From a virus: a DNA stretch of 48,420 nt. This document shows positions 1 to 47,807 of this stretch, piece after piece. Within the stretch, counting starts at the first letter, position 1. Each line of letters begins with the position of its first letter. Made by a program: the position numbers and the translations under genes. The stretch covers positions 1 through 48,420 of IMG/VR virus record IMGVR_UViG_3300042988_000468; one strand, 5' to 3'. Under the pieces are notes generated by a model that had not been told where the DNA came from, searched no databases, and worked only from the letters and a program-made list of their open reading frames with translations.

Positions 1-58
1 CACCACATCACGCGCGGTAATCATATATCACCACCATACTGTTCAGCCATGCGAGTCT

Positions 59-115
59 TCACCTCGCGTGCCACGTCAATCCACGCATCGGCGTCAATCG
101 TTTATTCTTAGACAT
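59..115 (-). pseudogene. Frameshifted left copy of the 48072-48317 gene
   Basis: The start codon and first eight codons (MSKNKRLT) are identical to the intact gene in the right repeat copy. The 151-bp deletion, which is not a multiple of three, then shifts the frame, and it closes at a TGA at 59-61 after 18 codons. If the two repeat copies both exist in the virion, only the right one can make the full 81-residue protein. If the window is a circular assembly, this is a deletion variant of the same locus. Confidence 0.7.
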
Positions 116-156
116 TCCACATCTCCATTTATTCGAGTTAGACAATTGTAACTACC

Positions 157-176
157 CCACCGGAACTGTCCGGTGG
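157..176. repeat. Small hairpin next to gene 230-493
   Basis: CCACCGGA and TCCGGTGG form a perfect 8-bp stem with an ACTG loop. The same hairpin is in the right repeat copy at 48359-48378. It lies between two minus-strand genes, downstream of 230-493 and upstream of the 48072-48317 gene. No T tract follows on either strand, so it is not a classical intrinsic terminator. Confidence 0.6.
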
Positions 177-179
177 TGT

Positions 180-208
180 GGTGATAGGGTGCCGCGCACC
201 CTATCACC
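180..208. repeat. 13-bp perfect hairpin after gene 230-493
   Basis: GGTGATAGGGTGC pairs perfectly with GCACCCTATCACC around a CGC loop. It lies 22 bases after the stop of the minus-strand gene 230-493, immediately beside the hairpin at 157-176, and is repeated at 48382-48410. It could stabilise the 3' end of that mRNA, attenuate transcription into the next gene, or be a protein site. There is no adjacent T run, so calling it a terminator would be a guess. Confidence 0.6.
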
Positions 209-229
209 ATAGTAAACAAAACTAGTATA

Positions 230-734: not shown

Positions 735-789
735 GCCCACCCCAGGACCATGTGATAATGTTGGGCAAAAATTTTTTTCGCATTTTCCC

Positions 790-866
790 GCCGCGCGCGG
801 CGCGCTGCGTCATTATACAATGTTTGGCAAAATTCGTCAATCCATTGTTTATACAATGTATTTTAT
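790..866. repeat. Direct repeat R1 (77 bp, partner at 915-991)
   Basis: This stretch aligns at a constant offset of 125 bases with 915-991. The shared core runs from a GC-rich patch through TACAATGTTTGGC, then TCAATCCATTGTTTATACAA, and ends in TGTATTTTAT, with only scattered differences. Inside it, CATTGT and ACAATG (843-848, 853-858) form a perfect dyad with a 4-base spacer. This looks like a duplicated operator or replication-iteron module. Confidence 0.75.
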
Positions 867-914
867 ATAATCCAAAGTAAATAAATACATTGTAATATGT
901 AATCCATTGTTCGC

Positions 915-991
915 ACCGCAAGCGGCGCACCGCGTTATTGTACAATGTTTGGCGAAATTTGTCAATCCATTGTTTATACAATGTATTTTAT
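915..991. repeat. Direct repeat R2 (77 bp, partner at 790-866)
   Basis: Second copy of the repeat described at 790-866. The dyad CATTGT-TTAT-ACAATG is conserved at 968-983, while the flanking GC-rich patch has diverged more than the AT-rich core. Conservation of the dyad over its surroundings suggests that it is the functional part. Confidence 0.75.
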
Positions 992-1174
992 GCAAAATAC
1001 ATTGTTATTCGTGCCAATGTACTGAAATGTATATGAAACGATACAAAATTAAACAATGGATGCATTTGTATCGAAAAGTATATAAACAAGTTCAATCAAT
1101 CTTGTTTACAAAAAATCGCAATGCGTCACAAAATTTCTCAATAATTTCGCACACTTGACGCGCCGCTCGTTTTA

Positions 1175-1203
1175 TTGACAAACGATTCATTCCATGCTAG
1201 ACT
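1175..1203 (+). promoter_or_regulatory. Sigma70-like early promoter
   Basis: TTGACA (1175-1180) is followed, after exactly 17 bases, by TAGACT (1198-1203), with TGC just before the -10 (extended -10). This is the best promoter-like sequence I found in the window. It points to the early operon starting at 1414, leaving a leader of about 200 bases. The -10 lies in the outer arm of the large inverted repeat, so the start of the transcript would contain that structure and promoter melting could compete with cruciform or protein binding. Confidence 0.65.
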
Positions 1204-1322
1204 TAGTCTGTACGTCTGAATAGTACCCGGTACAATGGATATTATTTTTTTAAGAGGCTGTTCGCTTCTTAAAAAAATGAATATCCATTGTACCTCGTAC
1301 TAGCAGACACGGACTAAGTCTA
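1198..1322. repeat. 125-bp nested inverted repeat (cruciform or leader RNA hairpin)
   Basis: Outer arms TAGACTTAGTC (1198-1208) and GACTAAGTCTA (1312-1322) are perfect complements, followed by GTCTG/CAGAC (1214-1218, 1304-1308) and GTAC/GTAC (1223-1226, 1297-1300). The inner arms GGTACAATGGATATT (1229-1243) and AATATCCATTGTACC (1280-1294) pair over 15 bp, then TTTTTTTAAGA pairs with TCTTAAAAAAA (1245-1255, 1267-1277). Each inner arm carries one TCCATTGT box. It could be an origin structure, an operator for a dimer, or an attenuating 5' leader of the early transcript. Confidence 0.8.
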
Positions 1323-1350
1323 GGTCCAATAACCCCCCGCGTCATACGAA

Positions 1351-1380
1351 TCCATTGTACTAATCTAAAATCCATTGTAC
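1351..1380. promoter_or_regulatory. Two TCCATTGTAC boxes upstream of the early operon
   Basis: TCCATTGTAC occurs at 1351-1360 and 1371-1380, a spacing of 20 bases, or about two helical turns, in the same orientation. The same 10-mer is in the right inner arm of the inverted repeat (1284-1293), with its complement in the left arm (1230-1239). Regular spacing and position between promoter and first gene suggest an operator array or iterons. Confidence 0.5.
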
Positions 1381-1413: not shown

Positions 1414-1635
1414 ATGGTTACTAAGGAACAAGCTCAAGCTCTCACCTACCGCACAGAGCTTTACCACAAGACTCTCAAAGACTCCCGCAAGGCACCGCTT
1501 AGGGCACGGGTCAATGGTCAGTGCAAGACTTGGAAGACACGTCCAGACGAGTGGCAATTGCCTATGAAGCATGGTCTGCGCACCTGCTTCTACATTACTC
1601 AAAGCAACGCGCACGAGTGGAGCATTGAGCCATGA
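1414..1635 (+). CDS. Hypothetical early protein
   Basis: First gene of the plus-strand early operon, 73 residues, preceded by AAAGGA about 7 bases before ATG. It is basic and rich in Lys, Arg, Thr and Trp, with no signal peptide or membrane segment. The stop overlaps the next start by 4 bases (ATGA), so translation is probably coupled. I do not recognise the family. Its position first after the promoter and operator region fits a takeover or regulatory role, but this is an inference from location only. Confidence 0.75.
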   Translation: MVTKEQAQALTYRTELYHKTLKDSRKAPLRARVNGQCKTWKTRPDEWQLPMKHGLRTCFYITQSNAHEWSIEP

Positions 1636-4096: not shown

Positions 4097-4637
4097 ATAC
4101 GACAATGGTCTGTTCATTAACTTGAGCGTTGCCATACCTAAGCCGGTGTTTGACGTGCTGGCTAAGATTGCGGAGGAGACCGACAGGCCGAAGTCATGGC
4201 TCATCATCTCCGCCATTTGCAATGAGATAGAGCAGTCGAGTAAACCGTTTGAGTATAGCATGAGCTTACCCAAAGATGAGCCTTTCGATGAGCTGGAACA
4301 TACGGAGAATGCCAAGAAGATCAGCGCGTTTTTTATCAAGCATTTTCAGCATGCCACCATTGCCAAGATACACTTGGTTATGTTGCGCGAGATCATCGGC
4401 ATACCGGACAAGAAGGAATTCCTGCAAGCCTATAAGACCCTGATCTTTATTGGTAAGCTGCAAGAGGTTGCCATGGTGTCGAAGTACAACGAGAAGCCCA
4501 TGGGCGTCGGTGTGCGCCTGGTATCGCTCCCACACGAAAGGAAGCTCAAGCAGATCAGACGGCATGAGGCTAAGAAGCGCATTGCAGAGAGACACATTCA
4601 ACGCATAAGTGAAGACTTGAAAGGGATTGACGAATGA
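4080..4637 (+). CDS. Putative ribbon-helix-helix DNA-binding protein
   Basis: 185 residues. Residues 12-50 fit a ribbon-helix-helix pattern: a short strand (LFINLSVAIPKPV), a first helix (VFDVLAKIAEETDRP), a turn, and a second helix (SWLIISAICNEIE). The remainder is helical with a very basic C-terminus (HERKLKQIRRHEAKKR). Such proteins are usually dimeric repressors that bind short inverted repeats, so this is one candidate for recognising the CATTGT/ACAATG dyads upstream of the operon. That link is inference. It overlaps both neighbours. Confidence 0.55.
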   Translation: MRYKNRYDNGLFINLSVAIPKPVFDVLAKIAEETDRPKSWLIISAICNEIEQSSKPFEYSMSLPKDEPFDELEHTENAKKISAFFIKHFQHATIAKIHLVMLREIIGIPDKKEFLQAYKTLIFIGKLQEVAMVSKYNEKPMGVGVRLVSLPHERKLKQIRRHEAKKRIAERHIQRISEDLKGIDE

Positions 4638-4828
4638 CAAAGGAACAATTGAAAGACTGGATTGTAAACCACGGCATGACCAATGACCAATTCGCCCGGT
4701 TTATCGGCGTGACTCAATCGTGCGTGATGCACTGGCTCTTTGGTCGAAGGAGCATTCCCATTACCGCTCAAAGGGTCATGCGGCTCATTGACCGCTATCC
4801 GGAGATGCAAGAGGAGTTTGGCAAATGA
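4634..4828 (+). CDS. Cro/C1-type helix-turn-helix regulator
   Basis: 64 residues, almost entirely a helix-turn-helix domain. MTNDQFARFIGVTQSCVMHWLF (about 15-36) has the usual pattern of a helix, turn with Gly-Val-Thr, and recognition helix ending in a Trp, followed by GRRSIPITAQRVMRLID as the supporting helix. It overlaps both neighbours by four bases. It is likely a dimeric repressor or activator of early transcription, and it is another candidate to bind the upstream operator dyads. Confidence 0.8.
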   Translation: MTKEQLKDWIVNHGMTNDQFARFIGVTQSCVMHWLFGRRSIPITAQRVMRLIDRYPEMQEEFGK

Positions 4829-5130: not shown

Positions 5131-5396
5131 TCAAGGGCTGGCGGGCTTTGGAGGACCTGGTAGGCTTAAAATCCCACTACATCAAGCGGGCCATGGGGCT
5201 TTACGGCTTCCCTAAGCCCGTCTGGGGCTTCACTCCGCACGCTGACGGCAGCGGCAGGGGAACACCGGCCAGGGTGTGGGATAGGGCAGCCGTGGAGCAA
5301 TGGCTTGTTGATGCTCGGGGCGACGGGCGAGGGGGGTTTTACTGCTCCCGCCCGTCTGACCCTGTGATGACAAACACTTTGCCGCCTGAGACTTGA
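5100..5396 (+). CDS. Putative excisionase/MerR-like DNA-binding protein
   Basis: 98 residues. The N-terminal half (IIKGWRALEDLVGLKSHYIK ... YGFPKPV) looks like the winged helix-turn-helix found in excisionase-type regulators, followed by ARVWDRAAVEQWLVDAR, the usual closing helix of that fold. It overlaps the HNH gene by 31 bases, and its last 58 bases overlap the end of the convergent PrimPol gene (5339-7255). No integrase is present, so it is more likely a transcription regulator than a true excisionase. Confidence 0.6.
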   Translation: MGREDQNKTIIKGWRALEDLVGLKSHYIKRAMGLYGFPKPVWGFTPHADGSGRGTPARVWDRAAVEQWLVDARGDGRGGFYCSRPSDPVMTNTLPPET

Positions 5397-7255
5397 TCGG
5401 GGTTTGCAACCGACTTCACAAACTCGCCCATGTGGCCATCAATACTCAAGATAGAGACCGCACGTTTGACCCGCTCCGCTGAGAGCGGGTCGCCGCAGGC
5501 TTTGAAGTGGGCGATGAGGAAATTCTGATTCGGGAATTTGTTCTCTTGCCGCTTCTCTTTGATGACACCAAAGACTCGCTCAATGTCAGAGAGCTTTTCT
5601 TCTTCTTCCCGCGCCTTGGCTTCGGACAACGCTTTCCTGGCAAAAAGGAAGCCGTCGCGCACGATGAGAAACGGCTTGTTGTAGAGAGGAGAGCCATCGG
5701 AAAACTTGTTCACGTTGCACATCATGGCGGATTGCTTATCGCCCAAGGTTGCGCCACCTGTAAGCTCCGCGTACTCATCATCGAACACTGGCCGCAAGGC
5801 CCGCGATACCCTGGCGTGAGACGGAAGTCCTGTGCCGCCCCGGCCTGCAAATTGGGTCATGTCTTTTTGTCCGGAGGAGACTTTACCCATGTGGTTGATG
5901 AGATGAACGCAAGCGCCGGATTGATGGACAAGCTCCGCGCATAGTTTAGTGACGGCCTTGGCCATGTCATTGAGCGCAGCTTCCGAACCCCAGAACGAGG
6001 AGATCGGATCAAGCACAATGAGCTTTGGTCTTATGTCCTCGACGGCTTCAAGCATTTTGCGAAGCGCATCCATGTTGGGATGTAGGAAGCCGTTTCGATC
6101 TTTGACAACCAAACAAAGGTCCGGATCTTTCTTGACCACAATGGAGTCGAGAACCCGGTTCACTTCCTCGTTGTACCTTGGGTCATCAAGGAGTCCCAAT
6201 TGCCGGAGGATTTGACCTATGATGGCTGCAATCTTCTCCGCTGTGTCCTCGCCGGTAATGAAGAGTGTTCTCCCTGGAGTGATGCAGCGGAAGCCGAGGA
6301 ACCGCTCGCCCAATGCCAGGCAAACCGCCTCATAGACTGCGAGGGTGGTCTTACCAGTGCCGCCGTCTGCGGTGGTCAGGGTGATGTCCTCGGTGGACCA
6401 ATGCTCAAAGAGCTGGGGTTTACGGAGCTTTGACGTGTCCATGATCGCCTCTCTTGTCAGTCTCGGCGGCGTCCACCGGGCAATGGTCGGCGGCGGCGGG
6501 ATGGAGATGACAGGTTGAGGCGGTGCGTTGTCAAAGGGAGAGGTCAGCGGATGCCGGAGACCACCGTCAATACCGGAGCGGATGGTGGCGATGGCCTCAG
6601 GACGCGGCTTATTGCGCTCTAGCGCAGCCGTCAGCAGCCCCGCCTCTGCGTATGCCCTGGATACTGAGCCTGCGGCCACGAGCTGCCCAAGGCGGTAGGA
6701 TTGGACGTTAAGGACGTTGTTCGACTCGCCTGCCGGCGCTTCGCGGATGGCCGTCAATGCCTCTTCCACGACGCGCATAGCTACCTCGCCGCTGACACTC
6801 GCCGGGACTCCGGACGTGTCGGGGTCTGCTTTTAGGCTTGCGTCGAGAAGCCACGAGGGAGCGTCGGCAATGGGTCGCTCGTCGGCTCCGTAGTAGACGA
6901 TGTAACCACCCTCCGCCCGGATGTCGAGACCGGGGAGGAATTTGACCCGGTTGCCATAGTGCCGGCCATCGGTCGGAAGTCGGAAGATGTAATGCCGACC
7001 ACCGCTTGGTGTCGCTTGCGCCTTGGTTTCCGGGAAAGCCGGAAGCTGTTTGAGTGTCTCATATCCGTTCCCTTTCATGTCTACGTCGAGCACGATAATG
7101 CCGTTGACGGTGCCAGTTGGAAGGCACCAATGCTTTATGCCGTCGCCGAAGTGAGCTTTCCACTCGGCTATTTTCGCCGGGTCTTTACTGCATTCTGTTT
7201 TCCACCGCACCAAGGGCCGGTCCTTAGCCGCGGCGGGGAAAAGATTGAATTGCAT
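5339..7255 (-). CDS. PrimPol-helicase (AEP primase/polymerase fused to RecA-like ATPase)
   Basis: 638 residues from ATG at 7255, which overlaps the upstream stop as TAATG after GGGGCGG; a start 11 codons earlier is open but less likely. The N-terminal archaeo-eukaryotic primase-type domain (about 1-150) shows LDVD (D57, D59), SGGRHYIF (H88) and GLDIRAEGGYIV. The C-terminal RecA/RepA-like ATPase has Walker A DGGTGKTT (297-304), GED (335-337), Walker B KLIVLDPIS (411-419) and a helicase-type HLINH. It probably primes synthesis and unwinds DNA for the phage polymerase. It is translationally coupled to the VRR-NUC gene, and its 3' end overlaps the convergent gene 5100-5396. Confidence 0.88.
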   Translation of the reverse strand: MQFNLFPAAAKDRPLVRWKTECSKDPAKIAEWKAHFGDGIKHWCLPTGTVNGIIVLDVDMKGNGYETLKQLPAFPETKAQATPSGGRHYIFRLPTDGRHYGNRVKFLPGLDIRAEGGYIVYYGADERPIADAPSWLLDASLKADPDTSGVPASVSGEVAMRVVEEALTAIREAPAGESNNVLNVQSYRLGQLVAAGSVSRAYAEAGLLTAALERNKPRPEAIATIRSGIDGGLRHPLTSPFDNAPPQPVISIPPPPTIARWTPPRLTREAIMDTSKLRKPQLFEHWSTEDITLTTADGGTGKTTLAVYEAVCLALGERFLGFRCITPGRTLFITGEDTAEKIAAIIGQILRQLGLLDDPRYNEEVNRVLDSIVVKKDPDLCLVVKDRNGFLHPNMDALRKMLEAVEDIRPKLIVLDPISSFWGSEAALNDMAKAVTKLCAELVHQSGACVHLINHMGKVSSGQKDMTQFAGRGGTGLPSHARVSRALRPVFDDEYAELTGGATLGDKQSAMMCNVNKFSDGSPLYNKPFLIVRDGFLFARKALSEAKAREEEEKLSDIERVFGVIKEKRQENKFPNQNFLIAHFKACGDPLSAERVKRAVSILSIDGHMGEFVKSVANPDQVSGGKVFVITGSDGREQ

Positions 7256-7641
7256 TACCGCCCCAAGATCGCCCGGAAGGATTCCCAACTATTCGCAAAG
7301 CCCGCAATCCCGCCCTTGGCTTTAACCCAGTCAATGAAAGCCCGCTGTGCTTTCTCTCGCTTGTCGGTGGGCGATGGCTTCCAGTCTTTCTTTTTACACT
7401 CGATGGCGGTGAAGATGGCGAAGGTCTTACCCACGTCTTCCGGAGCAATGACCTTGGTTGTGAAGCCGATGAGGTCGGACGACTTGATGCGACTGCTGAC
7501 CGCTTTTGAGTCATTGTTGAGACCAAAGCGCACAAGCCGCCCGGACTCATCCTTGAAAGCTCCGCTGTTGTTGCGCATGAGAATGGAACCAAAGGTTGGA
7601 GCATTTGCTCTAATGTAATCTTGGATGTCCGACTCATTCAT
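7255..7641 (-). CDS. VRR-NUC domain nuclease
   Basis: 128 residues that are essentially a single VRR-NUC domain of the PD-(D/E)XK superfamily. NNSGAFKDESGRLVRFGL leads to SSDLIGF (D56), then FTAIECKKKDW with the E81-x-K83 catalytic pair, and KAQRAFIDWVKAKGG (Q99) as the following helix. Stand-alone domains of this kind cut branched DNA such as Holliday junctions or flaps. It lies between an SF2 helicase and the PrimPol and overlaps both by a few bases, which supports a shared role in recombination-dependent replication or in resolving DNA before packaging. Confidence 0.88.
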   Translation of the reverse strand: MNESDIQDYIRANAPTFGSILMRNNSGAFKDESGRLVRFGLNNDSKAVSSRIKSSDLIGFTTKVIAPEDVGKTFAIFTAIECKKKDWKPSPTDKREKAQRAFIDWVKAKGGIAGFANSWESFRAILGR

Positions 7642-10289
7642 CGAATACCTTCCTCGTTAAGACGTTCAATCATTTGTTGCATGGCTGCTCTCGGTTCTCC
7701 GAGTTTCTCTGTGATAGTACCGTCGAAATCGAGATAGAATTTCTTGTGGATCATGCGGTCGGTGAGTCCGGTTTGACGTTGTCTTCCCGCCCACTTCGCA
7801 ATGAGATGGACCAATTGCTTCTGGGTCTCGATGCGTTTCTGGTGGTCCTTCATGGCCTTCTGTGCCGCCGCCGGCCCCGCCGCCATGCCTACCCGCTTGG
7901 CCACAATAGCGGGGTCATCGAGCTGTGCTTTCAATTCAAGCTCGTGCAGCGTCTCCGGGTCGATAAGCTCGAGGTCTCCGTCCACCATGACAGGAGGAGT
8001 CCGACCACCGTTCTCGCCCCTTGACTGCGTGATCGCCTCAGTACCACACCAAGGGCACTCAGTTAGAAGCCGGTCATAGGGAGAGTTACATTCTATGTTC
8101 GAGCAGATGCGAATGAAGTTAGTCTTCTCCGTTCGCTTGGTGTAGCGGTCGAGGGTCCAGGATCTTGTGGAGTCGGGGAGTCCATGCCTGGTGACGTTGC
8201 CCACATGGTCGATCAAAATAAGATGAGGCTTGTCATCCGCGGTTCTTAAACCCCGGCCGACCATTTGCAAAAATTTACTCAAGCTCATGGTGGGCCTGGC
8301 CATGATGACACACTCAATTCCCGGCACGTCGAGACCCTCGTCAAAGAGGTCCACGTTGATGAGCACCTTGATCTTCTTAGCTCTGAAGTCGAGCATCCCC
8401 TCAAGCCTCTCCTTGTCGCTGCTCTCCCCGGTCAAGGTGATGGCTTTGATGCCAGCGTCGTTATAGCGCCTCTCCATGAGCCGTGCGGTGGCGATGTCGG
8501 TGGCGAAGAGGATCGCTTGCTTTCCATTAGCGAAGCGTTGGTAGTTTGTCACCACGTCGCCGACGATGTGTGACTTCTTAGAAGCCGCGGCCATGGCTTC
8601 CTTCGAGTAGTCGGAGTTAGCGCCTGCTCGCTTTAGAAATTGTTGATAGTCGGAGGGTGGGATGGCAATTTTATATCGGCATAGGTAACCATTTTCGATG
8701 AGCCATCGAGTGCCGGGACCTTCGACAAGCGTATCGAATATCCCATCGGCATGTCGTCCGAGACCTTTTTTATCCAGTCGGCGAGGTGTAGCGGTAACTC
8801 CAAGTGCGACGGCATTAGGAAAATAATCGAAAGCTCGTCCCCATTTGTTTTCTTTGAGCACATGCGCTGCTTCGTCAATAATGGCCAGACGAATCTTCTG
8901 GGTCCAGTTTTGGTGGTGTTTGATGCGCGCATGGAGCGTGTCCACTGATAGTACAGAAATAGGAGAGTGATAGTCGTAATACTGACGCCCAAGAACACGT
9001 CGATGAGCGGCCACAATGCCGAGGATTGTTGGTCGAGGGGCGATGATGTTGTGAACAAGTCCTTCCTCCGCAAGTGTTAAACTAATTTGCTGTACCAGTT
9101 CCTTCCTGTGTACCATGATGGCAGTAGGAAGAGAGCGTGTCGAGTCGAATGCTTGCTCCTTAGCAATAGCGCAGAAGGTCCGGGTGTTGTGAGTAACGGT
9201 AAAATCACCGAGCAAAAATCTACCGTCTCCGTCTAGTTCAAAACCGTAATACTCGCCTTCACCCAAAGACGCCACTGAGAATCCGGTTTTTAGAACGTCC
9301 TTTTTCTGAAGTCTCGGCGCAGCTTTTTTTCTGTTCACTTTGCAAGGGATGCGGTTGACGTTTCCGCTAATACTTATGCGATAATATTCACCACTAAACC
9401 CGCTTGATTTAATTGTCGCAGTTTTCCTTCTGGAATATGCCGCGAAACCTAGACTTCTGGCCAGGAAAAGAATGTCCCTATTCAATGAATCATATTTAGT
9501 TGTGATTTCATAAAAACCATTATGGAGATGTCCGTCTCCGTCAAGTAACCCGGCCAATAATTCAAGTCTAGTTGTCTCGTCGTTTATCAGATAGTCTCTC
9601 GGTATCCATCTGTCGTCTTGATTGCAGCAAGATTGCGCCAATCTTTTCATTTTGTTTTTGTACCAAGCACGAATATGATCGGAGAAGTAAAGCATGGCGC
9701 ATCCTCTTCCTCCTTGAACAGTTATTTTCATCCCGTTTATTTTTGCCCATTCCACCAAGTAAAAGATGATCGCCATGTCTGGGGTGGTAATACAAGGCTG
9801 GTCCCATGTACCTTCAGCTAGATAAAGACCTACGAGGTACGGATCGAAAGACCTCGGTCGTGAAGGGAAATTTACTCCGGTTCTGAATTGCTTGAAGATG
9901 TGTTTGAACCAATTCGTTTCTTTCAGATATTTGTCGAGAGGTATATCTATTATCGCACCGTTTTCTGTATGCTTTAGTGTCAGCATGTGGACATCGTTGC
10001 ACACCCAAGGATCGCCCTTGATCGGGGTTATCTGAAATAATTCGGATTGACCGGATGTAGTCCCTAGTACGGTTCTCGGTTTGGAGTCTGGACCCATGAG
10101 TGAGTCGCCTACTTTTATTTCTTCGACTGACTTCACTTGTCCGTCATACATTAAAACCGGAGTCCCTTTGCCTAGACACTTCCCTCCGCCTGTTGGACAA
10201 ACGGCCAGCACGTTCTTGAAGCCGGATTCCCATGCTTCATATATCTTCCGGCGAAGCTCTAACTGGTAGTCACGCAAAACTATTGCCAT
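7638..10289 (-). CDS. SF2 DEXH-type helicase containing an intein
   Basis: 883 residues as translated, 552 after removal of the 331-residue intein (residues 38-368). The N-extein ends CPTGGGK and the C-extein resumes TRTFCAI, so splicing rebuilds Walker A as PTGGGKT. Later motifs are IIDEAAH (Walker B, D472-E473), GVTATPRR (motif III), LINVDLFDEGLDVP (motif V) and QMVGRGLR (motif VI). A zinc-ribbon-like pair (CSNIEC ... CPWC) follows the core. It resembles the COG1061-type phage helicases used in replication, recombination or transcription. Because the intein interrupts the ATP site, the precursor should be inactive until splicing. Confidence 0.92.
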   Translation of the reverse strand: MAIVLRDYQLELRRKIYEAWESGFKNVLAVCPTGGGKCLGKGTPVLMYDGQVKSVEEIKVGDSLMGPDSKPRTVLGTTSGQSELFQITPIKGDPWVCNDVHMLTLKHTENGAIIDIPLDKYLKETNWFKHIFKQFRTGVNFPSRPRSFDPYLVGLYLAEGTWDQPCITTPDMAIIFYLVEWAKINGMKITVQGGRGCAMLYFSDHIRAWYKNKMKRLAQSCCNQDDRWIPRDYLINDETTRLELLAGLLDGDGHLHNGFYEITTKYDSLNRDILFLARSLGFAAYSRRKTATIKSSGFSGEYYRISISGNVNRIPCKVNRKKAAPRLQKKDVLKTGFSVASLGEGEYYGFELDGDGRFLLGDFTVTHNTRTFCAIAKEQAFDSTRSLPTAIMVHRKELVQQISLTLAEEGLVHNIIAPRPTILGIVAAHRRVLGRQYYDYHSPISVLSVDTLHARIKHHQNWTQKIRLAIIDEAAHVLKENKWGRAFDYFPNAVALGVTATPRRLDKKGLGRHADGIFDTLVEGPGTRWLIENGYLCRYKIAIPPSDYQQFLKRAGANSDYSKEAMAAASKKSHIVGDVVTNYQRFANGKQAILFATDIATARLMERRYNDAGIKAITLTGESSDKERLEGMLDFRAKKIKVLINVDLFDEGLDVPGIECVIMARPTMSLSKFLQMVGRGLRTADDKPHLILIDHVGNVTRHGLPDSTRSWTLDRYTKRTEKTNFIRICSNIECNSPYDRLLTECPWCGTEAITQSRGENGGRTPPVMVDGDLELIDPETLHELELKAQLDDPAIVAKRVGMAAGPAAAQKAMKDHQKRIETQKQLVHLIAKWAGRQRQTGLTDRMIHKKFYLDFDGTITEKLGEPRAAMQQMIERLNEEGIR
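9186..10178 (-). mobile_element. LAGLIDADG intein in helicase Walker A
   Basis: The 331-residue insert begins with Cys (CLGKGTPVLMYDG, block A) and ends FTVTHN followed by Thr, the standard C-terminal His-Asn and +1 nucleophile. The splicing block B is DVHMLTLKH-like. Two LAGLIDADG helices, LVGLYLAEGTW (intein 115-125) and LLAGLLDGDGHLH (about 207-219), each keep an acidic catalytic residue, so the homing endonuclease may be active. It is AT-richer than the surrounding gene. Insertion exactly between Lys and Thr of the P-loop is a frequent intein site because that sequence is highly conserved. Confidence 0.93.
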
Positions 10290-14139: not shown

Positions 14140-14478
14140 ATGAGTGAGCCGAGAGAAGCCTGCACGGCTGATATGCCAACCGATGAGATAACTGCGACCA
14201 ATGGGTGTGTTTACGTCCGCCAGACCATTTACGACGCGCTCAAGGCCGAGGTGGAGCGGCTAAAGCAATCACAGAAGGGCTATGCTCCCGGCATTTTACA
14301 CGCGCTTGAGCGCGAGCGCGAGATCAACCGGGTGTTGGTGGAGGCGCTTAAAAGCTATGTCGATGGTCAGAGATGTCCTTACGCAAAAGAGACACTGGCG
14401 AAGGTCGAGGAGATGCGACAACCAAAGCCTACCTTTGGTCCTGACATTGGTGAAGATGGGGAGATATGGCAGGACTGA
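14140..14478 (+). CDS. Coiled-coil protein, copy 2 of a tandem pair
   Basis: 112 residues, a shortened paralogue of the preceding gene. It keeps the start MSEP, one LKAEVERLK unit, EREINRVLVEALK and ETLAKVEEM, but lacks the central coiled-coil repeats. The nucleotide identity in the shared blocks is high, suggesting a recent duplication and contraction. It has three cysteines not found in copy 1. Its end overlaps the polymerase start by 13 bases, so the pair is probably co-translated with the polymerase. Confidence 0.75.
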   Translation: MSEPREACTADMPTDEITATNGCVYVRQTIYDALKAEVERLKQSQKGYAPGILHALEREREINRVLVEALKSYVDGQRCPYAKETLAKVEEMRQPKPTFGPDIGEDGEIWQD

Positions 14479-16430
14479 TTCCTTACACTTATGACCTGGA
14501 GACGTTCTCGGATTGCTTTTTGTTTATCGGAAAGTTTCCGAAACGAAATTGCGAGGTGTATGAAATCTCCACGCGCAAGAACCAGCGCCAGGAGTTACTG
14601 CAACGGCTGTCGTACCTTCAAGCCCTTGGTGTCACCATGGTCGGTTACAATAACCTCGACTTCGACTATCCGATCATTCACAGCCTACTCCATGAGCCGT
14701 ACATATTTGACGCCAACAAAGCCTACCACCTGGCTCAGGCCATCATTGGTGGTCAACGCTTCAACCGTCCGCAGATTCCATTCAAGGAGCGCATCCTTCC
14801 GCAGCTCGACTTGATGAAGCTCCACCACTTCGACAACACAGTGAAGTACACAAGCCTTAAGTCCCTTCAGTTCGCCATGCGCCTGCCGTCCGTCGAGGAT
14901 CTGCCCTACGACCCGCACTCGCATTTGACCTCGGAGCAAATGGACAACCTTGTGGCTTATGGTTGTCACGACGTTGAGTCCACCGAGATGTTCCTCTACA
15001 AGTCCGAATCCATGATTAAGATGCGCCAGGACCTCATCGAGAGCGGCGTTCTCTTCGGTGATGTGCTGAACTACTCCGATGTCAAGATCGGCATTGAGTA
15101 CCTTTGTAAGAAGATCGGAAGAAATAAGTGCTTCATCTCGGGGTCAAACCCCCGTCAAACGCTCCGTAGCCAGGTGACTTTCAAAGATATTGTGTTACCT
15201 AAGATCAACTTCAGAACGGAGCCGTACAGTTCGACGCTCGACTGGTTCAAGTCTCAAGTCGTCTACGCAGCCAAGGCTCAGAAACCTAAGCTCGAAGCTA
15301 CTCTCTCTAATCTCGTTTTCCATTTTGGTGTTGGTGGAGTTCATGCTTCTGTTGAGTCTCGCGCCTTTAGAAGCACAGACGAGTATATCATCCGAGATGT
15401 TGACGTTGGCGGTATGTACCCTGCTATCGCCGTGGCTAACGGATTTGCTCCGGAACACCTTGGAGTGTCTTTCGTTCAAGCCTACCGACAGCTCAAGGTA
15501 GACAGAGACCGATACCCCAAAGGTGCGTCAATGAACCTGACTCTCAAGCTCGCCAACAATGGTGCGTTTGGGAACATGGGAAACCCCTACTCTTGGTTGT
15601 TCGATCTCAAGTGTCTTTACTCCATCACCATCAACGGTCAGCTCCAAATCCTTCAACTCGCTGAGATGCTTGCGAGTATCCCTGAGACACGACTTATCCA
15701 AGCCAATACTGATGGCATTACCCTCTACATGCGCCGTGATATGGAGCCGTTCTTCCTTATGTGGTGCGAGGAGTGGGAGAGGCAGACCAACCTCAAGCTC
15801 GAGCACAGTGTTTTTGAGAAGATGTGGATACGAGACGTGAACAATTACCTGGCGGTGGACACCAAGGGTAAGGTGAAGCGCAAGGGTGCCTACTGGTATC
15901 CGATCACAGACGAGGATTACCAAGGGTCGAGCGGGTCCAATTGGAACAAGGACTTCTCGAACCTCGTCGCACCAAAGGCCGCGGAGCTTTGCATGATTTA
16001 TGGTTACTCCCCTAGTGAAGCTGTGCGAGTGTTCTCGAACCCCTTCGACTTCATGCTGCGCTATAAGACTCCGGCCGGGGCCAAGGTGTTCATCGGTGAT
16101 GTCGAGCAGTCTCGCACCACTCGGTATTACGTCTCGCTCAAGGGTGAGAGAATGAAAAAGGTATCTATTCCCAAAGGGGAGATTGGCACATATAAGAGAG
16201 CCAACAAGATACCGGACGAGCTTTGGCAGAGAGTGATGCAGGAGATTCCGCCCGGTACTTGGGATTCCCGTGTACACACTAAAAACAAGTCGAAGTACAC
16301 CGAGGTCACAACCGGCATTGAGAGCGGACGGCTGGTGAAGAATTGCAACCGTGCGAGTGACTTCGACTGGCGTGATTTGGACTGGAACTACTACGAAAAA
16401 GAAATCGAAAAGCTAGTCATTGGAGGCTAA
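14466..16430 (+). CDS. Family B DNA polymerase with 3'-5' exonuclease
   Basis: 654 residues. The exonuclease motifs are YDLETF (D10, E12), NNLDFDYP (D65, D67) and YGCHD (Y165, D169). The polymerase motifs are DVDVGGMYP (A, D311/D313), KLANNGAFG (B, K361) and ANTDGI (C, D416), where the first Asp of the usual DTD is Asn, a variant seen in related phage enzymes that keeps the second, metal-binding Asp. The length is typical of compact phage family B enzymes. It is the replicative polymerase, probably primed by the PrimPol at 5339-7255 and possibly supported by the clamp-like protein at 2073-2606. It starts inside the previous gene. Confidence 0.93.
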   Translation: MAGLIPYTYDLETFSDCFLFIGKFPKRNCEVYEISTRKNQRQELLQRLSYLQALGVTMVGYNNLDFDYPIIHSLLHEPYIFDANKAYHLAQAIIGGQRFNRPQIPFKERILPQLDLMKLHHFDNTVKYTSLKSLQFAMRLPSVEDLPYDPHSHLTSEQMDNLVAYGCHDVESTEMFLYKSESMIKMRQDLIESGVLFGDVLNYSDVKIGIEYLCKKIGRNKCFISGSNPRQTLRSQVTFKDIVLPKINFRTEPYSSTLDWFKSQVVYAAKAQKPKLEATLSNLVFHFGVGGVHASVESRAFRSTDEYIIRDVDVGGMYPAIAVANGFAPEHLGVSFVQAYRQLKVDRDRYPKGASMNLTLKLANNGAFGNMGNPYSWLFDLKCLYSITINGQLQILQLAEMLASIPETRLIQANTDGITLYMRRDMEPFFLMWCEEWERQTNLKLEHSVFEKMWIRDVNNYLAVDTKGKVKRKGAYWYPITDEDYQGSSGSNWNKDFSNLVAPKAAELCMIYGYSPSEAVRVFSNPFDFMLRYKTPAGAKVFIGDVEQSRTTRYYVSLKGERMKKVSIPKGEIGTYKRANKIPDELWQRVMQEIPPGTWDSRVHTKNKSKYTEVTTGIESGRLVKNCNRASDFDWRDLDWNYYEKEIEKLVIGG

Positions 16431-38796: not shown

Positions 38797-39846
38797 TTAG
38801 AAGCCGTCGTAACCGGGGTTCGTGCTGGTAACGCGGCTCTCAGTGTTGAGAAGAGCGTCGGAGCGACGAACCGGGAAGCCCAAGAACATGAGGACCTTCG
38901 ACCCTTGGTAGTTGTCGTAGGTCAGACCCGCGCCAGCTCCGACCTTGGTCAGAGCTTGCTTGTGCAGGAAGGCTTCGATGGTGCGGTTGACGTACCAGAA
39001 GCCAGGACCATTTTGCGGGTTGTGGATCTTGTAGTGAGCCGAGATCATCAGGTCGATGAGATCAGCAGCACTCGCGCCAGACACCAAGTTGTCCACGTCG
39101 ATGTTGCAGATGCGGGCGGCTTGGCGGTAATCCTTCACGACCAGACCATGGTCGATCTCGAATTGCTCTTCATAACCCCAGAAGTTGCCGGCGTTGCCGC
39201 TGGAATCAAGGGCGTTGATTTGCACTTGCTTGCCGCCGGTCGAGCGGTCGGTGCGCTTGAGACCAGCGGTCGTACCTTTCGGATAAATACCGAAGATCGA
39301 ACGCTCACCCCAATGGACCCGCAGGATCGACGTGTTGACCGACCCGGTACCGCCGCCGTCGATCACTTGCTTGGAAGTCTCTTCCGAAGTGTTCGTCGTG
39401 CAATAGATGTCCATGAAACCCGCAACCTTCAGGTTGGAGGTGTACGGAGATCCGTAGACAGTCAGGGAGGCGTGTTCTTGCGCGTGGGCTTGCAAGTGAC
39501 CCATCGCTTGGTTCCAGCGGTTGTACGGGATGCGGTCGAGACCGCCACGGCTGGCCACGGCATGGTCGATTTGGCTCTTCGACTCGAAGTGTGCGGCCGT
39601 GAAGGTGCGCTCTTCAGTGGTCGTCTTGCTGGCCGGAATTGCTTGGTTCGCTTTCCGGTAGTAGACCGCGGGCAGCGCCGAGCGGATCTCTTCTTTGTGG
39701 ATGGTTCCCTCGTTCATTTCCATGTAGGGAATGTCCATCAGCATGGGGTTCTCCTGAACGAGAACCTCGGCCACCTTGCCGATTTGTTTGTCTTTGCTTT
39801 TCGCAACATCGGCCAGAGTGACTAGTGTGCTACCGAGTACGCTCAT
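38797..39846 (-). CDS. Major capsid protein
   Basis: 349 residues, HK97-fold type of the Bbp17/GP7-like group by pattern: LGSTLVTLADVAKS at the start, VLVQENPMLMDIPYMEMNEG (start of E-loop region), then RTFTAAHFESKSQIDHAVAS, and a C-terminal domain with GFWYVNRTIEAFLHKQAL. ATG overlaps the scaffold stop (ATGA) after GGGGGAA. The flanking scaffold and Bbp16-like genes and the terminator behind it support high expression. It forms the icosahedral shell. Confidence 0.9.
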   Translation of the reverse strand: MSVLGSTLVTLADVAKSKDKQIGKVAEVLVQENPMLMDIPYMEMNEGTIHKEEIRSALPAVYYRKANQAIPASKTTTEERTFTAAHFESKSQIDHAVASRGGLDRIPYNRWNQAMGHLQAHAQEHASLTVYGSPYTSNLKVAGFMDIYCTTNTSEETSKQVIDGGGTGSVNTSILRVHWGERSIFGIYPKGTTAGLKRTDRSTGGKQVQINALDSSGNAGNFWGYEEQFEIDHGLVVKDYRQAARICNIDVDNLVSGASAADLIDLMISAHYKIHNPQNGPGFWYVNRTIEAFLHKQALTKVGAGAGLTYDNYQGSKVLMFLGFPVRRSDALLNTESRVTSTNPGYDGF

Positions 39847-41491: not shown

Positions 41492-42271
41492 TCAATTCAC
41501 GTCCGTCCACGCACCATTCCCGACACCGATGGGTGCCCAGAGGTTTGCACCAACGGCTTCAAGCGTGATGCTCGAACCGATGTCGGTGCAACGAATGGCG
41601 TCTCCCGCGGACGGAGTGATGGCAGCGCCGGTACCACCGGCAACCGAGTTCAGAGCCGGACCAATCTGGTCCGTTCCATCGTTCGGATTGATGTCGAAGT
41701 CATCGGCCGTTCCACAGACGAAAGTGTATCTGCACCCGAGAGCAGTCGAAGCCTCAGGCAGCGTCAACACGTCCGCGCTGTTCGAGACGAACGTACTACC
41801 GCACTGAGCGATGGTTGCCGTCGTGGTCGTCGATGCGACTTGCGCTTGCAGGAAGCCACTCACCGTATCCCCGCCGTCACCCGTGATCCCGCCGGTCAGC
41901 GTGATGTCACCATCAGACGCGGCCATGGTCAGCTTGGCAACTTGAGACCCGCTGGTGTCGTTGGAAAGAGTGAAGGTGTTGCCGGAGGCGACAGAGGCCA
42001 ATTGCCAGTCATCGCCGTTGTCGTCGGACTCATCCGCTTTGATGGTCACGGTGGCGTCGGTGGCTTCCGCAGCACTCACACTCAAGGCACCAGTCGAGAC
42101 GGTGGGAGAGCTGACCATCGTCAACTTGTCCCCGACCTTGGTACAGGTCAGACCGGTTGAGCAGTTGATTTTGTTGAATACGCCAAGAGATGTCCCGGCG
42201 CTAAGACCTTGAACACCGGCATACACAGCCGTCGAGAACAGGATCAAGATAAGTGAACTGAAAAGCCTCAT
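41492..42271 (-). CDS. Secreted fibre/decoration-like protein
   Basis: 259 residues. A Sec signal peptide (MRLFSSLILILFSTAVYAG) precedes GTSLGVFNKINCSTGLTCTK, then Ser/Thr-rich beta strands of phage-fibre type and a C-terminal domain with FVCGTADDFDINPND and TLEAVGANLWAPIGV. It lies between portal and head genes, a normal place for virion proteins, yet its N-terminus would send it out of the cytoplasm. It starts inside the portal stop (ATGA). This is the second fibre-like protein in the window with a signal peptide. Confidence 0.72.
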   Translation of the reverse strand: MRLFSSLILILFSTAVYAGVQGLSAGTSLGVFNKINCSTGLTCTKVGDKLTMVSSPTVSTGALSVSAAEATDATVTIKADESDDNGDDWQLASVASGNTFTLSNDTSGSQVAKLTMAASDGDITLTGGITGDGGDTVSGFLQAQVASTTTTATIAQCGSTFVSNSADVLTLPEASTALGCRYTFVCGTADDFDINPNDGTDQIGPALNSVAGGTGAAITPSAGDAIRCTDIGSSITLEAVGANLWAPIGVGNGAWTDVN

Positions 42272-44013
42272 TGCGGTTGTCCCCCGTTTTGGTTGTTCAT
42301 TTGCAAGCCTACGTCTTTTGCCGCACCAGCCACCGCCGGCAGAGTCTCTTCGAGCATCCGCTGCTGTTGTTGCTGGCGCTGCTGCGCCTCGCGTATTGCG
42401 TCCACTTTATCCTGCGGTCTGTTCAAGCCCGCAGGCAAGAACAATCTGTCTTCGTAAAGGTCGCAGAGTTTGTCGAGGTTTACCTTGTCCCAAACCGCCG
42501 GATTGATTTGGCCGACGTTGCCGACCATGGCCATATATCGGTCGATCACCGGCAGGTCAGCAGCTTTTTGCGCCTGAGCGAAAACCGATATGAATACCGG
42601 ACGAAGGTACTGCCCGGCCAGCTCCCGCGGCATGGGCCAATTCTCCATCACCGGGTCGTCGAACATCACATAGTCGGCGACGAACTCAACGACCGGAATG
42701 TTGTACGTCCAGTTGAGAGACTGGAGCATGGGACCAATCACAAGCTGCTGCTCGCGCACGATGTTCTCGGTCTCGGTGGCGGTGCGGGTCTTCGGGTTCA
42801 TGCTCAGATAAAGCAGGAAGTCCGCATAGTAGAGCTTGTCCACCATTTGCCGAAGGTCAGTTACGTCCTGGACCAAAGCCGCGATTGCCGGGTTGACCTC
42901 AAACACCGGCCGAAGTCCGTTCTTAGAGATAGTGTGCGGGTCAAGCGGGATGTAGGAGTTAGCGGCAGTCGTGATGTACGACTTCTTCAAATTGGCAGGA
43001 CCTTGGAGCGGAGGCTTGAGCATCTGCTCGAGCGCCATGTCCTTGCTGATGGCCTTCTTGTTCAGGCTCTTGATGATCCCGAGGGCCATGAGCGTAGGGC
43101 CGGTCTCGCCGTACTCGAAGTTGTTGCCGGAGTCGGATTTGCCCACGATAAAGGGCTTCCTCCGTGAAGCCGACACATTCAAAAACTTATTACCCTTCTC
43201 CCGCTCGTCCAGTCCCTCGGTCAGCTCGAGAGCTGCGTACTCGGTACCAGAGGAGCCTGTCGCCCCAAGCTCGTAGGTGATCGACACCCATTTGCGGTTG
43301 AGAAGTGCTTGCGGCCCGGACGGGTTAAAGTCCGGGTTCTCGGTGCAAACATGGACGACCGTGATCGGCATGGTGTAAATGCCGTCCTCGTAGAGCTTGC
43401 GCGTTTGTCGGGAGATGTTCGACCAATCCCACCCACCACTTGCCGTGCGCTTACCATAGGTCTCAACCACGGCCTTCACCGTCATCGAGAACTCCCTGAC
43501 CATGGTTACGGCTTCGTTGTATCCATTGTTCAGGACGTAATAGGATCCGGGGACGAGCGTGTGGAAATAGAGCCTGCGGTCTACCTCCTCGATGTAGTGC
43601 GCCCCGGTGTTGAACACCCCGAAGTCATAGTAGAACTGGCCAGCAGCGTTATAGAAGTTGGACTCGGAGAGGATCGAGAACGTGCGCTGAGTGAAGCGGT
43701 CCAGCCACTCATGGCAGTTTGCCCTCATATTCAACTCAGGATCGGCTGTAGCGAACCGATACCAAGGACGGCTTGCCGAGGTATTCCCCTCAAGGAAGCC
43801 CGCAACGTAGGACCGTAGAGCGAGCAGGTGAGTGCCATCTACGATGTGCATGTTGGTGCGCTCACCCTCAGTTTGCGAGTTCATCCATTTGATGCGGTGA
43901 GGCGTTGCCCAACGTCCGCACTCGATCCAAGACGAGCGACAGCGATCAAACCGTTGCTTGGCGATCTGGCGGAGGTACTCGCATTTTTGCTGTGGGATTG
44001 GTGAGTCCATCAT
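42268..44013 (-). CDS. Portal (head-tail connector) protein
   Basis: 581 residues of the podovirus head-tail connector type: QRFDRCRSSWIECGRWATPH, then VDGTHLLALRSYVAGFLEGN, SESNFYNAAGQFYYDFGVFN, and LVPGSYYVLNNGYNEAVTMV. It has a Gln-rich C-terminal helix typical of the barrel. The length is close to that of T7 gp8 (536). Two starts one codon apart are possible (44013, 44010). It forms the DNA entry dodecamer. Confidence 0.92.
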   Translation of the reverse strand: MMDSPIPQQKCEYLRQIAKQRFDRCRSSWIECGRWATPHRIKWMNSQTEGERTNMHIVDGTHLLALRSYVAGFLEGNTSASRPWYRFATADPELNMRANCHEWLDRFTQRTFSILSESNFYNAAGQFYYDFGVFNTGAHYIEEVDRRLYFHTLVPGSYYVLNNGYNEAVTMVREFSMTVKAVVETYGKRTASGGWDWSNISRQTRKLYEDGIYTMPITVVHVCTENPDFNPSGPQALLNRKWVSITYELGATGSSGTEYAALELTEGLDEREKGNKFLNVSASRRKPFIVGKSDSGNNFEYGETGPTLMALGIIKSLNKKAISKDMALEQMLKPPLQGPANLKKSYITTAANSYIPLDPHTISKNGLRPVFEVNPAIAALVQDVTDLRQMVDKLYYADFLLYLSMNPKTRTATETENIVREQQLVIGPMLQSLNWTYNIPVVEFVADYVMFDDPVMENWPMPRELAGQYLRPVFISVFAQAQKAADLPVIDRYMAMVGNVGQINPAVWDKVNLDKLCDLYEDRLFLPAGLNRPQDKVDAIREAQQRQQQQQRMLEETLPAVAGAAKDVGLQMNNQNGGQPQ

Positions 44014-44375: not shown

Positions 44376-44821
44376 CGACCCCTCATGCAGTACACATCTT
44401 CAGTGCGCACGAACCCGAGCTTCTCAAGAGTGCGCCCTTTAACATTCGTGCGTTTCGTCGTCATGGTAAAGACCAAATCCGCATTCTCAACGCCAAAGGT
44501 GACGAAATGCTTCATCAACCTATACGCTGCCATACCGCTTGACTTCTGACAATACAGCAAGTCCTGAAAGAGCGTGATTTTATCCGGGTCCCAGAGGTTG
44601 CGGTACGCACGAGCGAGGAGCGCACCAACTGGCTTCCCGTCTCTACGCGCCACCCAAAAAAAGTGACGCTGCATGTACGTCTCCATCTCACAAGCGGCCA
44701 CGACTGGACGATAGTCGTATATCCCCTTGAACCGCTCGGTCAGGTCAAGGCTTGCGGTGGCGATGAAGTGACGAAGCTCAGGTGTCAGCTCGGTTACTCT
44801 CTCAATCGTACAGTCTCTCAA
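44372..44821 (-). CDS. GNAT-type acetyltransferase-like protein
   Basis: 149 residues from a TTG at 44821, preferred because GAGG stands six bases upstream; the first in-frame ATG lies far inside the terminase gene. FFWVARRDGKPVGALLARAY and QKSSGMAAYRLMKHF are the beta4-alpha3 acetyl-CoA region of the GNAT fold, and EKLGFVRTEDVYCMR is the typical C-terminal end. Such proteins are common beside the portal in podoviruses. Their substrate is unknown; host protein or virion modification is possible. It overlaps the terminase end by 20 bases. Confidence 0.75.
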   Translation of the reverse strand: MRDCTIERVTELTPELRHFIATASLDLTERFKGIYDYRPVVAACEMETYMQRHFFWVARRDGKPVGALLARAYRNLWDPDKITLFQDLLYCQKSSGMAAYRLMKHFVTFGVENADLVFTMTTKRTNVKGRTLEKLGFVRTEDVYCMRGR

Positions 44822-46394: not shown

Positions 46395-46630
46395 GTGCCC
46401 TCAGTCTCAGTGGTGTCCTCTGTGGGTGTAGCGTCAGGTGGCGGTGTCTCAGCAAACCAACACTTGTAGCCTCTGACCTGATAGGTCTCCCCTCTACAAG
46501 TCTTGCTTATCTGACTCTGCTGCAACCCCTCCGCTCTGGCTGCTGCCATCTGACTCGGGTACTCGACTCTCTCCCCAGTCGGCCTCTGTATGACGACTGC
46601 TCTCTGCCAAGGCATTCCCTTGCGACTCAT
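46391..46630 (-). CDS. NUMOD-like small DNA-binding protein
   Basis: 79 residues, with AAGGAGG seven bases before ATG. The central PSQMAAARAEGLQQSQISKT ... GYKCWF matches the NUMOD-type helix-turn-helix usually attached to homing nucleases: an A-rich helix, a turn, Q-S-x-I-S helix, and a final aromatic. No nuclease domain follows, so it may be a remnant or an independent regulator. Its first 137 bases overlap the C-terminal coding region of the terminase small subunit in another frame. Confidence 0.6.
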   Translation of the reverse strand: MSRKGMPWQRAVVIQRPTGERVEYPSQMAAARAEGLQQSQISKTCRGETYQVRGYKCWFAETPPPDATPTEDTTETEGT

Positions 46631-47282
46631 CGTGTCCTCCTTGCGTCACATCGCGGGCCATCAGGGCCTTCCTCTCATCAGCCTTGCGTCTGCTTCCGAG
46701 TAGAATATCCGCCATGTTGCTTGTGATGTCGTGCTCGACTTTCTTAGTCTCTTTGAAGATGTTCTTCTCTCGTCCTAAAAGCTCAATGGACTTTAGCTTG
46801 TCCCAGAGTTCGACCTCGATCAACTGACCAATCACCGTGCGCATACCATTGGCATCCTCGCCGTAAATATTCTTAGCTTTGAATTTGCGTATGGCTCTGC
46901 GTACTCTAGGGTCTAGCTGGCTTAAGTGAGTCTTGAAGGTACCATCTGGATTCTCGAAGTCACCAAGGTCAACCTCGACAATCTCCTTCACTCTCTCGAT
47001 GACCTCGTCTGCTTCATAACCATACTTCATAAGCTGCTTTGCAGTCAGCTCTTTGATGGCTTCATATACATCAACTTTGTTTAGTAGGTTTGCGCCCTGA
47101 GAGTAAGTGAGGTCTGCTTTTTTCGCAGCCTCCGAGGTCAGACGACAACCAACATAGGCCAGGACAAAGCGCACAACCCTCGGGTCCTGGAAGTGCTTCG
47201 GGGTCAAGATGCGCTCTAATATAAGGACCTTCTCGTCATCATTGAGAGCACGAGGAGACGGAGGTGGAGGAAATCTACTCAT
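46494..47282 (-). CDS. terS: Terminase small subunit
   Basis: 262 residues. FVLAYVGCRLTSEAAKKADL followed by YSQGANLLNKVDVYEAIKEL is the N-terminal DNA-binding helix-turn-helix usual in this family. The middle forms helical oligomerisation segments. The last 60 residues are low-complexity, and their coding region is shared with the NUMOD-like gene in another frame. There is no clear ribosome binding site before the ATG. It recognises the packaging site and directs the large subunit. Confidence 0.82.
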   Translation of the reverse strand: MSRFPPPPSPRALNDDEKVLILERILTPKHFQDPRVVRFVLAYVGCRLTSEAAKKADLTYSQGANLLNKVDVYEAIKELTAKQLMKYGYEADEVIERVKEIVEVDLGDFENPDGTFKTHLSQLDPRVRRAIRKFKAKNIYGEDANGMRTVIGQLIEVELWDKLKSIELLGREKNIFKETKKVEHDITSNMADILLGSRRKADERKALMARDVTQGGHDESQGNALAESSRHTEADWGESRVPESDGSSQSGGVAAESDKQDL

Positions 47283-47606: not shown

Positions 47607-47610
47607 CCTA

Positions 47611-47724
47611 ATTTACTACATTGTATTTCGTAAACTAATTTTGTGGAAATTTACTACATTGTATTTCGTAAACTAATTTTGTGTAAATTTACTACATTGT
47701 ATTTCGTAAACTAATTTTGTGTAA
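47611..47724. repeat. Three 38-bp tandem repeats with TACATTGTA box
   Basis: Units at 47611-47648, 47649-47686 and 47687-47724 are identical except for one base near the end of the first. Each contains CTACATTGTATTTCGTAA and then CTAATTTTGTG, and AT content is high. CATTGT also occurs repeatedly in the 841-1380 region. Perfect head-to-tail repeats of this size resemble replication iterons or late-operator arrays; they lack spacers and so are not CRISPR. Confidence 0.85.
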
Positions 47725-47807
47725 ATTTCCACAAGTTTGGGGGACGACCTTTTCATATTTCCCACACACTCGATTTTTGCTCCCCCACCCCCTCGAACAA
47801 AAAAAAA

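What the first reader, a model, noticed from the sequence alone, without database searches (positions are those of the whole stretch)
1175..1322. Promoter embedded in a 125-bp nested inverted repeat
A near-consensus promoter (TTGACA, 17 bases, TAGACT) has its -10 inside the outer arm of a long inverted repeat whose inner arms pair over 15 and 11 bp and each carry the TCCATTGT box. The early transcript would begin inside this structure. It may be a regulatory cruciform, an attenuating leader RNA, or an origin with a primer transcript.
Basis: partly seen in the sequence, partly recalled or inferred. Interest (0 to 1): 0.62.

Follow-up and report, generated by a model that had tools for sequence, protein, structure and literature searches.

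The report
Early promoter inside a DNA hairpin
In a family of uncultured tailed phages, the start signal of the early genes is built into one arm of a long DNA inverted repeat; the letters differ from phage to phage but the ability to pair is kept, which suggests that folding of the DNA helps to control when these genes are read.

Summary
Window 1197-1323 is one near-perfect 127-bp hairpin (54 Watson-Crick plus 2 G-U pairs, 5-nt loop; RNA z about -15). A near-consensus promoter (TTGACA-17-TAGACT, extended TG) has its -10 at the outer edge of arm 1. In relatives (TerL 58-70% identical) the early promoter shows the same layout with unrelated sequences: arm 1 starts at the -10 and pairs with a segment 80-130 bp downstream. 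Own arms pair at 9.9 of 12 positions against 6.5 when swapped between phages (0 of 20,000 permutations). Direct repeats at that spacing are absent. Searching hairpins first gives the same link: promoter score of 10 or more at arm 1 in 8 of 46 hairpins, against 0.3% of random positions and 0 of 46 at arm 2. Most of arm 1 lies upstream of the start site, so an RNA leader alone does not explain it; mismatches show no G-U bias. The TCCATTGT box belongs to a separate family-wide repeat, A(A)CATTGTT, probably an operator; a conserved 64-aa Cro-like protein is a candidate binder. Best reading: a DNA-structure-gated early promoter in which self-pairing hides the -10. Function is inferred. Rivals are a leader RNA, a replication-origin element and paired operators.

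The parts
1175..1180 (+). -35 element TTGACA of the early promoter, outside the hairpin
   Evidence: same placement in relatives
1198..1203 (+). -10 element TAGACT (TG at 1195-1196), inside outer arm 1
1197..1211 (+). outer arm 1, CTAGACTTAGTCTGT: the -10 down to about +2
   Evidence: pairs with 1309-1323 at 14 of 15, the exception being T-G
1309..1323 (+). outer arm 2, ACGGACTAAGTCTAG
1197..1323 (.). whole quasi-palindrome: 54 Watson-Crick pairs, 5-nt loop at 1259-1263
1210..1210 (+). predicted transcription start (inferred from -10 spacing, not mapped)
   Evidence: inference
1230..1240 (-). ATCCATTGTAC box in the left inner arm
1283..1293 (+). ATCCATTGTAC box in the right inner arm
1350..1380 (+). 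two further ATCCATTGTAC boxes (1350-1360, 1370-1380) between the hairpin and the first early gene
815..1061 (.). left-hand cluster of (A/C)CATTGT boxes, both strands (815, 840, 851, 902, 940, 965, 976, 1051)
812..840 (-). leftward promoter TTGACG-17-TATAAT with a box at each element
937..965 (-). leftward promoter TTGACA-17-TACAAT, about 125 bp from a near copy at 812-840
1338..1344 (+). CGCGTCA motif just after arm 2, present at the same place in several relatives; inverted copy TGACGCG at 1156-1162
1414..1635 (+). first early gene (73 aa, no family)
4634..4828 (+). 64-aa Cro/lambda-repressor-like HTH protein, conserved across the family; candidate binder of the CATTGT boxes (binding not tested)

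Best explanation
The feature is the early promoter of a podovirus-like phage, built so that the -10 element and start site form the outer arm of a 127-bp quasi-palindrome. Shown here: the layout (-35 outside, -10 to about +1 in arm 1, partner 80-130 bp downstream) recurs at the early promoters of most examined relatives with unrelated but complementary sequences. Inferred: the pairing works at the DNA level as a conformational gate. In relaxed or newly injected linear DNA the promoter is ordinary duplex and host sigma70-type RNA polymerase fires it. When the strands fold on themselves (cruciform under negative supercoiling, or hairpins on separated strands during replication) the -10 is cut off from the -35 and hidden, and the early promoter goes quiet. 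Also inferred: a Cro-like early protein binding the CATTGT boxes, two of which lie in the inner arms here, adds repression. When transcribed, the leader would itself be a very stable 5' hairpin.
For: Hairpin z about -15. Five relatives' early promoters were picked by promoter consensus before arms were looked for; arms then appeared in all five (L049 only 9 of 11, not significant alone). Arms of 9 or more occur only at early promoters among 114 strict promoter-like sites in 796 kb. No direct repeats at the same spacing. Whole-element scores for 14 early promoters against 250 control promoters: 12 of 14 at or above 14, against 12%. Hairpin-first test: promoter score 10 or more at arm 1 in 8 of 46, at arm 2 in 0 of 46, random 0.3%. 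Own against swapped arms 9.9 against 6.5 of 12, 0 of 20,000 permutations. Adding the untranscribed arm increases the folding z in every phage examined. Mismatches: G-U 23, A-C 20, so no RNA bias. Arm 1 starts within about 4 bases of the -10 in most well-scoring cases, as expected if its job is to split the -10 from the -35. Arm spacing is not a constant number of helical turns (read). Precedent: Horwitz and Loeb 1988, in which a cruciform represses an E. coli promoter, cited in PMC6060812.
Against: No experiment; host unknown; start sites not mapped. In several relatives (L023, L025, L049, L016) the interior pairs poorly, so spontaneous cruciform extrusion from duplex DNA would be difficult there; a hairpin on separated strands would be easier. 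L081's candidate early promoter has no hairpin, L041's candidate shows no significant arms, and L079's match may lie in coding sequence. Some relatives (L023, L047, L074, L090, L096, L100, L101) were recognised partly by their arms. A fold predicted on one strand is not proof of a structure in the cell.
Confidence: 0.4

Rival explanations
1. The element acts as RNA: the early transcript starts at about 1210 with a roughly 100-nt hairpin that protects the mRNA 5' end, is cut by RNase III, or modifies elongation (as HK022 put sites do); complementarity upstream of +1 is a by-product.
For: Transcript-only folding z -12.4 in the window, -5.9 in L028, -3.4 in L029 and L047. Arm-1 mismatches in window, L016, L028, L029 and L025 are all G-T or T-G.
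Against: Conserved pairing includes the untranscribed -10. Transcript-only z is weak in L016, L025, L023, L049 and L074 (about -0.8 to -2.1). No G-U excess overall. No U-run terminator and no Rfam family at gathering score.
Confidence: 0.22
2. It is a replication-origin element: the promoter transcript or the exposed strands form a hairpin or R-loop used for priming, with the CATTGT repeats as iterons for an initiator such as the conserved PrimPol-helicase.
For: Largest intergenic region, divergent module boundary, repeated boxes on both strands; PrimPol-AAA helicase conserved; cumulative GC skew minimum near 1-2 kb. T4 oriF/oriG pair a promoter with an unwinding element (PMC3016281).
Against: GC skew is confounded by gene direction. 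Boxes also overlap promoter elements, which suits operators. An origin hairpin need not begin at the -10.
Confidence: 0.2
3. Arms are two operators for a phage-specific repressor whose DNA specificity varies between phages (an immunity-type system), one on the -10 and one about 100 bp downstream, possibly looped.
For: Overlap with the -10 is typical of operators. The window arm contains an internal palindrome, AGACT-T-AGTCT.
Against: Inverted, not direct. No fixed helical phasing. Complementarity continues through the leader in the stronger cases. Arms of most other phages are not palindromic. The conserved HTH and box signals point to CATTGT instead.
Confidence: 0.1
4. The hairpin is a transposon-like or assembly artefact with no function.
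For: Among the loci examined only this phage has such a complete hairpin; no near relative covers the region.
Against: Arms are not identical, so not a fold-back artefact. The layout recurs with unrelated sequence at the same promoter position in other assemblies.
Confidence: 0.03

Closest known systems
Cruciform-repressed E. coli promoter (Horwitz and Loeb 1988, cited in PMC6060812)
   Same: Inverted repeat at a sigma70-type promoter; extrusion would block transcription.
   Different: That case is a single E. coli promoter; here the design is natural, recurrent in a phage family and asymmetric (-10 in arm 1, leader as the rest). Extrusion is not shown.
Phage N4 virion RNA polymerase early promoters (PMC4496689)
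   Same: Phage early promoters in which a DNA hairpin matters and non-conserved stem bases only need to pair.
   Different: N4 hairpins are small, lie between -17 and +1 and are read by a virion RNA polymerase. Here the hairpin is 84-138 bp at a host-type -35/-10 promoter and no RNA polymerase gene was recognised.
Frpo/ssi single-stranded DNA promoters of conjugative plasmids (PMC11541004)
   Same: Folded single strand with a -10 in the duplex part.
   Different: In Frpo the -35 and -10 both lie in the structure that mimics duplex; here the -35 is outside it.
T4 oriF/oriG type origins (PMC3016281)
   Same: Promoter plus downstream structured or easily unwound DNA near early genes.
   Different: No R-loop or origin activity shown; T4 origins do not need specific sequence or a long inverted repeat.
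HK022 put antitermination RNA (from memory)
   Same: Structured RNA near the start of an early transcript.
   Different: put RNAs conserve sequence; here sequence is free and pairing includes untranscribed DNA.

Membership tests
Cruciform-gated promoter | Promoter core element inside an inverted repeat able to extrude | tested here: met
   -10 inside arm 1; DNA-parameter hairpins on both strands, -45 and -42 kcal/mol
Cruciform-gated promoter | Pairing rather than sequence is conserved | tested here: met
Cruciform-gated promoter | Extrusion occurs under negative supercoiling and changes transcription | not testable with these tools
   needs probing and reporter assays
N4-type vRNAP hairpin promoter | Small hairpin between -17 and +1 (3-nt loop) | tested here: not met
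   hairpin runs from -12 to about +114, with a host-type -35 and -10
N4-type vRNAP hairpin promoter | Virion-packaged RNA polymerase encoded | tested here: inconclusive
   2279-aa virion protein matches only phrog_9880 of unknown function; no RNAP hit in Pfam or PDB sequences
Frpo/ssi ssDNA promoter | -10 and -35 both in the folded structure | tested here: not met
   -35 at 1175-1180 lies outside the hairpin that starts at 1197
Intrinsic terminator/attenuator | G+C-rich stem followed by a U-run | tested here: not met
   no terminator called at 1197-1340
Known structured RNA family | Match at Rfam gathering score | tested here: not met
   (only sub-threshold miRNA-precursor hits, as any long hairpin gives)
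Transcription-primed replication origin | Primer transcript or R-loop and initiation at this place | not testable with these tools
   no replication data
Cro/lambda-repressor-like regulator (4634-4828) | HTH fold by profile | tested here: met
   phrog_4779 1.7e-5; PDB profile hit to a lambda repressor-like protein at E 0.001; conserved in relatives
Cro/lambda-repressor-like regulator (4634-4828) | Binds the CATTGT boxes | not testable with these tools
   inference only

The most novel reading that the evidence does not exclude
A new class of phage early promoter, widespread in an uncultured podovirus lineage, whose defining feature is a sequence-free, pairing-conserved inverted repeat running from the -10 to about +80 to +115, so that DNA secondary structure and not a conserved operator sets early expression (or converts the promoter into a replication start).
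Probability: 0.4. Interest if true: 0.8.

Novelty: new variant of a known kind. Interest (0 to 1): 0.62.

Why it matters
Natural promoters controlled by DNA secondary structure are rarely demonstrated outside N4. Here evolution supplies a natural set of pairing-preserving variants at the same promoter position, which makes the question directly testable with reporter plasmids. If confirmed, it would show that a phage lineage uses DNA topology as an early-gene timer, and it gives a sequence-independent signature for finding early promoters in metagenomic phages.

Tried and rejected
Close relatives covering the hairpin: none found; L003/L012 is identical in its genes but ends before the hairpin. 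Sliding-window RNA folding of all loci was too noisy and was replaced by arm and hairpin alignment; a BLAST self-search timed out. N4-type virion RNA polymerase: no support. Known RNA family: none. Terminator: none. The TCCATTGT box as part of the hairpin mechanism: rejected as the main point, because the box is a separate family-wide repeat also found outside hairpins. Mobile-element reading: disfavoured, since terminal sequences differ between phages. A promoter reading leftward from arm 2: weak in the window (ATGACG-17-TAGACT) and not supported across the family. A prophage relative in cellular genomes: only one metagenome-assembled contig (L079).

Full report
What is there. The window is a 48,420-bp virus record from a T7-like podovirus lineage: head-tail adaptor 42268-44013, major head protein 38797-39846, terminase genes 44802-47282, DNA polymerase 14466-16430, PrimPol-AAA helicase 5339-7288. 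The finding lies in the large divergent intergenic region between a leftward small-gene block (230-493) and the rightward early operon that starts at 1414.

The observation. TTGACA (1175-1180), 17 nt, TAGACT (1198-1203) with TG before it is a good host-type promoter. The inverted repeats listed separately are one hairpin, 1197-1323, with a 5-nt loop. It folds far better than shuffles as RNA (-77.3 kcal/mol, z -15) and as DNA (-45.4, z -16). Arm alignment gives 54 Watson-Crick pairs with 4 gap positions and 5 mismatches. The arms are not identical, so it is not an assembly fold-back.

Relatives. No close relative spans the region, but terminase and primase alignments brought in about 90 loci, most of the same lineage. 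In one search relatives' early-side promoters were listed by consensus; reading the sequence downstream showed that the -10 is again the outer arm of an inverted repeat: L016 TAAACTTTACAT, L025 ATACTTGTGA, L028 TGGTAATATAGCT, L029 TAAAATGTTAGT, L049 TAACATGTGGG (9 of 11), each with its complement 80-127 bp downstream. The arm sequences are unrelated to each other.

Controls. (a) Of 114 strict promoter-like sites in 796 kb, arms scoring 9 or more are found only at early promoters: window, L028, L025, L016, L029, L023. With relaxed promoter criteria the background is 52 of 2,294 sites. (b) Direct repeats of the -10 region at the same distance are not seen. (c) Whole-element hairpin scores: 12 of 14 early promoters at or above 14, against 30 of 250 control promoters; some of those controls are the same element, as in L090. 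(d) Hairpin-first: among 46 strong hairpins in the intergenic regions, 8 have a promoter score of 10 or more at the upstream arm in the early direction and none at the other arm; random positions give 6 of 2,040. (e) Swapping arms between 12 phages drops complementarity from 9.9 to 6.5 of 12; none of 20,000 permutations reaches the observed sum. Selection caveat: L023, L047, L074, L090, L096, L100 and L101 were recognised partly through their arms. The unbiased subset is the five relatives, of which L049 is weak alone. L041 and one L047 candidate (7646) showed nothing, and L081 is a clear negative.

DNA or RNA. The conserved outer arm covers about -12 to -1, which is not transcribed from this promoter. 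Folding z of the full element exceeds that of the predicted transcript in every phage examined (L016 -4.4 against -1.7, L023 -4.5 against -0.8). Mismatches inside the arms are as often A-C as G-U on the coding strand (20 against 23), so nothing favours RNA. The spacing between arms (about 80-130 bp) shows no helical phasing, which speaks against a protein-bridged loop. I therefore prefer a DNA-level structure. Whether it is a cruciform in supercoiled duplex or a hairpin on separated strands cannot be decided; in the window, L028, L096 and L101 the hairpin is complete enough for extrusion, in L023, L025 and L049 it is not obviously so.

Mechanism. The upstream edge of arm 1 falls at the -10 in most phages. 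Folding therefore separates the -10 from the -35 and hides the start site. A promoter of this kind would be open on freshly injected, relaxed DNA and closed once the genome is supercoiled or replicating. That is the best explanation (confidence 0.4). The order of events, the extrusion itself and its effect on transcription are inferred.

The boxes. TCCATTGT is one form of a family-wide repeat: ACATTGTT occurs 92 times in 53 kb of relatives' noncoding sequence against 3.5 expected, in 19 of 29 loci (contexts). In the window, boxes overlap the two leftward promoters at both elements. A conserved 64-aa HTH protein encoded at 4634-4828, found in most relatives that cover that end of the early operon, is Cro/lambda-repressor-like and is the natural candidate to bind them. 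Two boxes lie in the hairpin's inner arms in this phage; I did not see this elsewhere.

Comparison. N4 early promoters and Frpo elements are the nearest structured promoters; each fails a defining feature here (hairpin size and position; the -35 outside the fold). An E. coli promoter regulated by cruciform extrusion (Horwitz and Loeb 1988, cited in PMC6060812) is the closest in logic. I file it as a new variant of a known kind: it works like a structure-gated promoter, but membership is not shown because extrusion was not tested.

Noticed in passing
window about 47730-47800 (minus strand); same block upstream of TerS in at least 15 other loci (e.g. L025 -1308, L041 -1362, L090 -1181 relative to TerL): A highly conserved block of about 65 bp, GAGGGGGTGGG(A/T)CAAAAAT...GTAAAGGTCGTNTCAAAAA, mostly single-copy near TerS; possible packaging site, genome end or late promoter.
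   Followed up: partly
window 47610-47728: Three tandem 38-bp repeats, each with an ACATTGTAT box, upstream of terminase.
   Followed up: no
window 1-218 and 48052-48420: The contig ends are the same sequence except for about 150 bp missing from the first copy, inside ORF 48072-48347; L003/L012 carries the short version. The genome is circularly closed or terminally repeated and two variants coexist.
   Followed up: partly
window 179-209 (= 48381-48411): Perfect 14-bp stem, 3-nt loop palindrome TGGTGATAGGGTGCCGCGCACCCTATCACCA, at which contig L003/L012 from another sample ends exactly.
   Followed up: no
window 7638-10289: The helicase gene carries an intein (Hom_end_hint plus homing endonuclease domain).
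   Followed up: no
window 785-1005: Two near-identical leftward promoter units about 125 bp apart, each with boxes at -35 and -10: a local duplication.
   Followed up: no
L016, L025, L049, L042, L096, window 1156 and 1338: GC motif GCGCCGCGTYAT recurs after arm 2 and, often inverted, upstream of the -35.
   Followed up: partly
L028, L017, L023 intergenic regions: Long arrays of a degenerate TCTCTACA octamer repeat.
   Followed up: no
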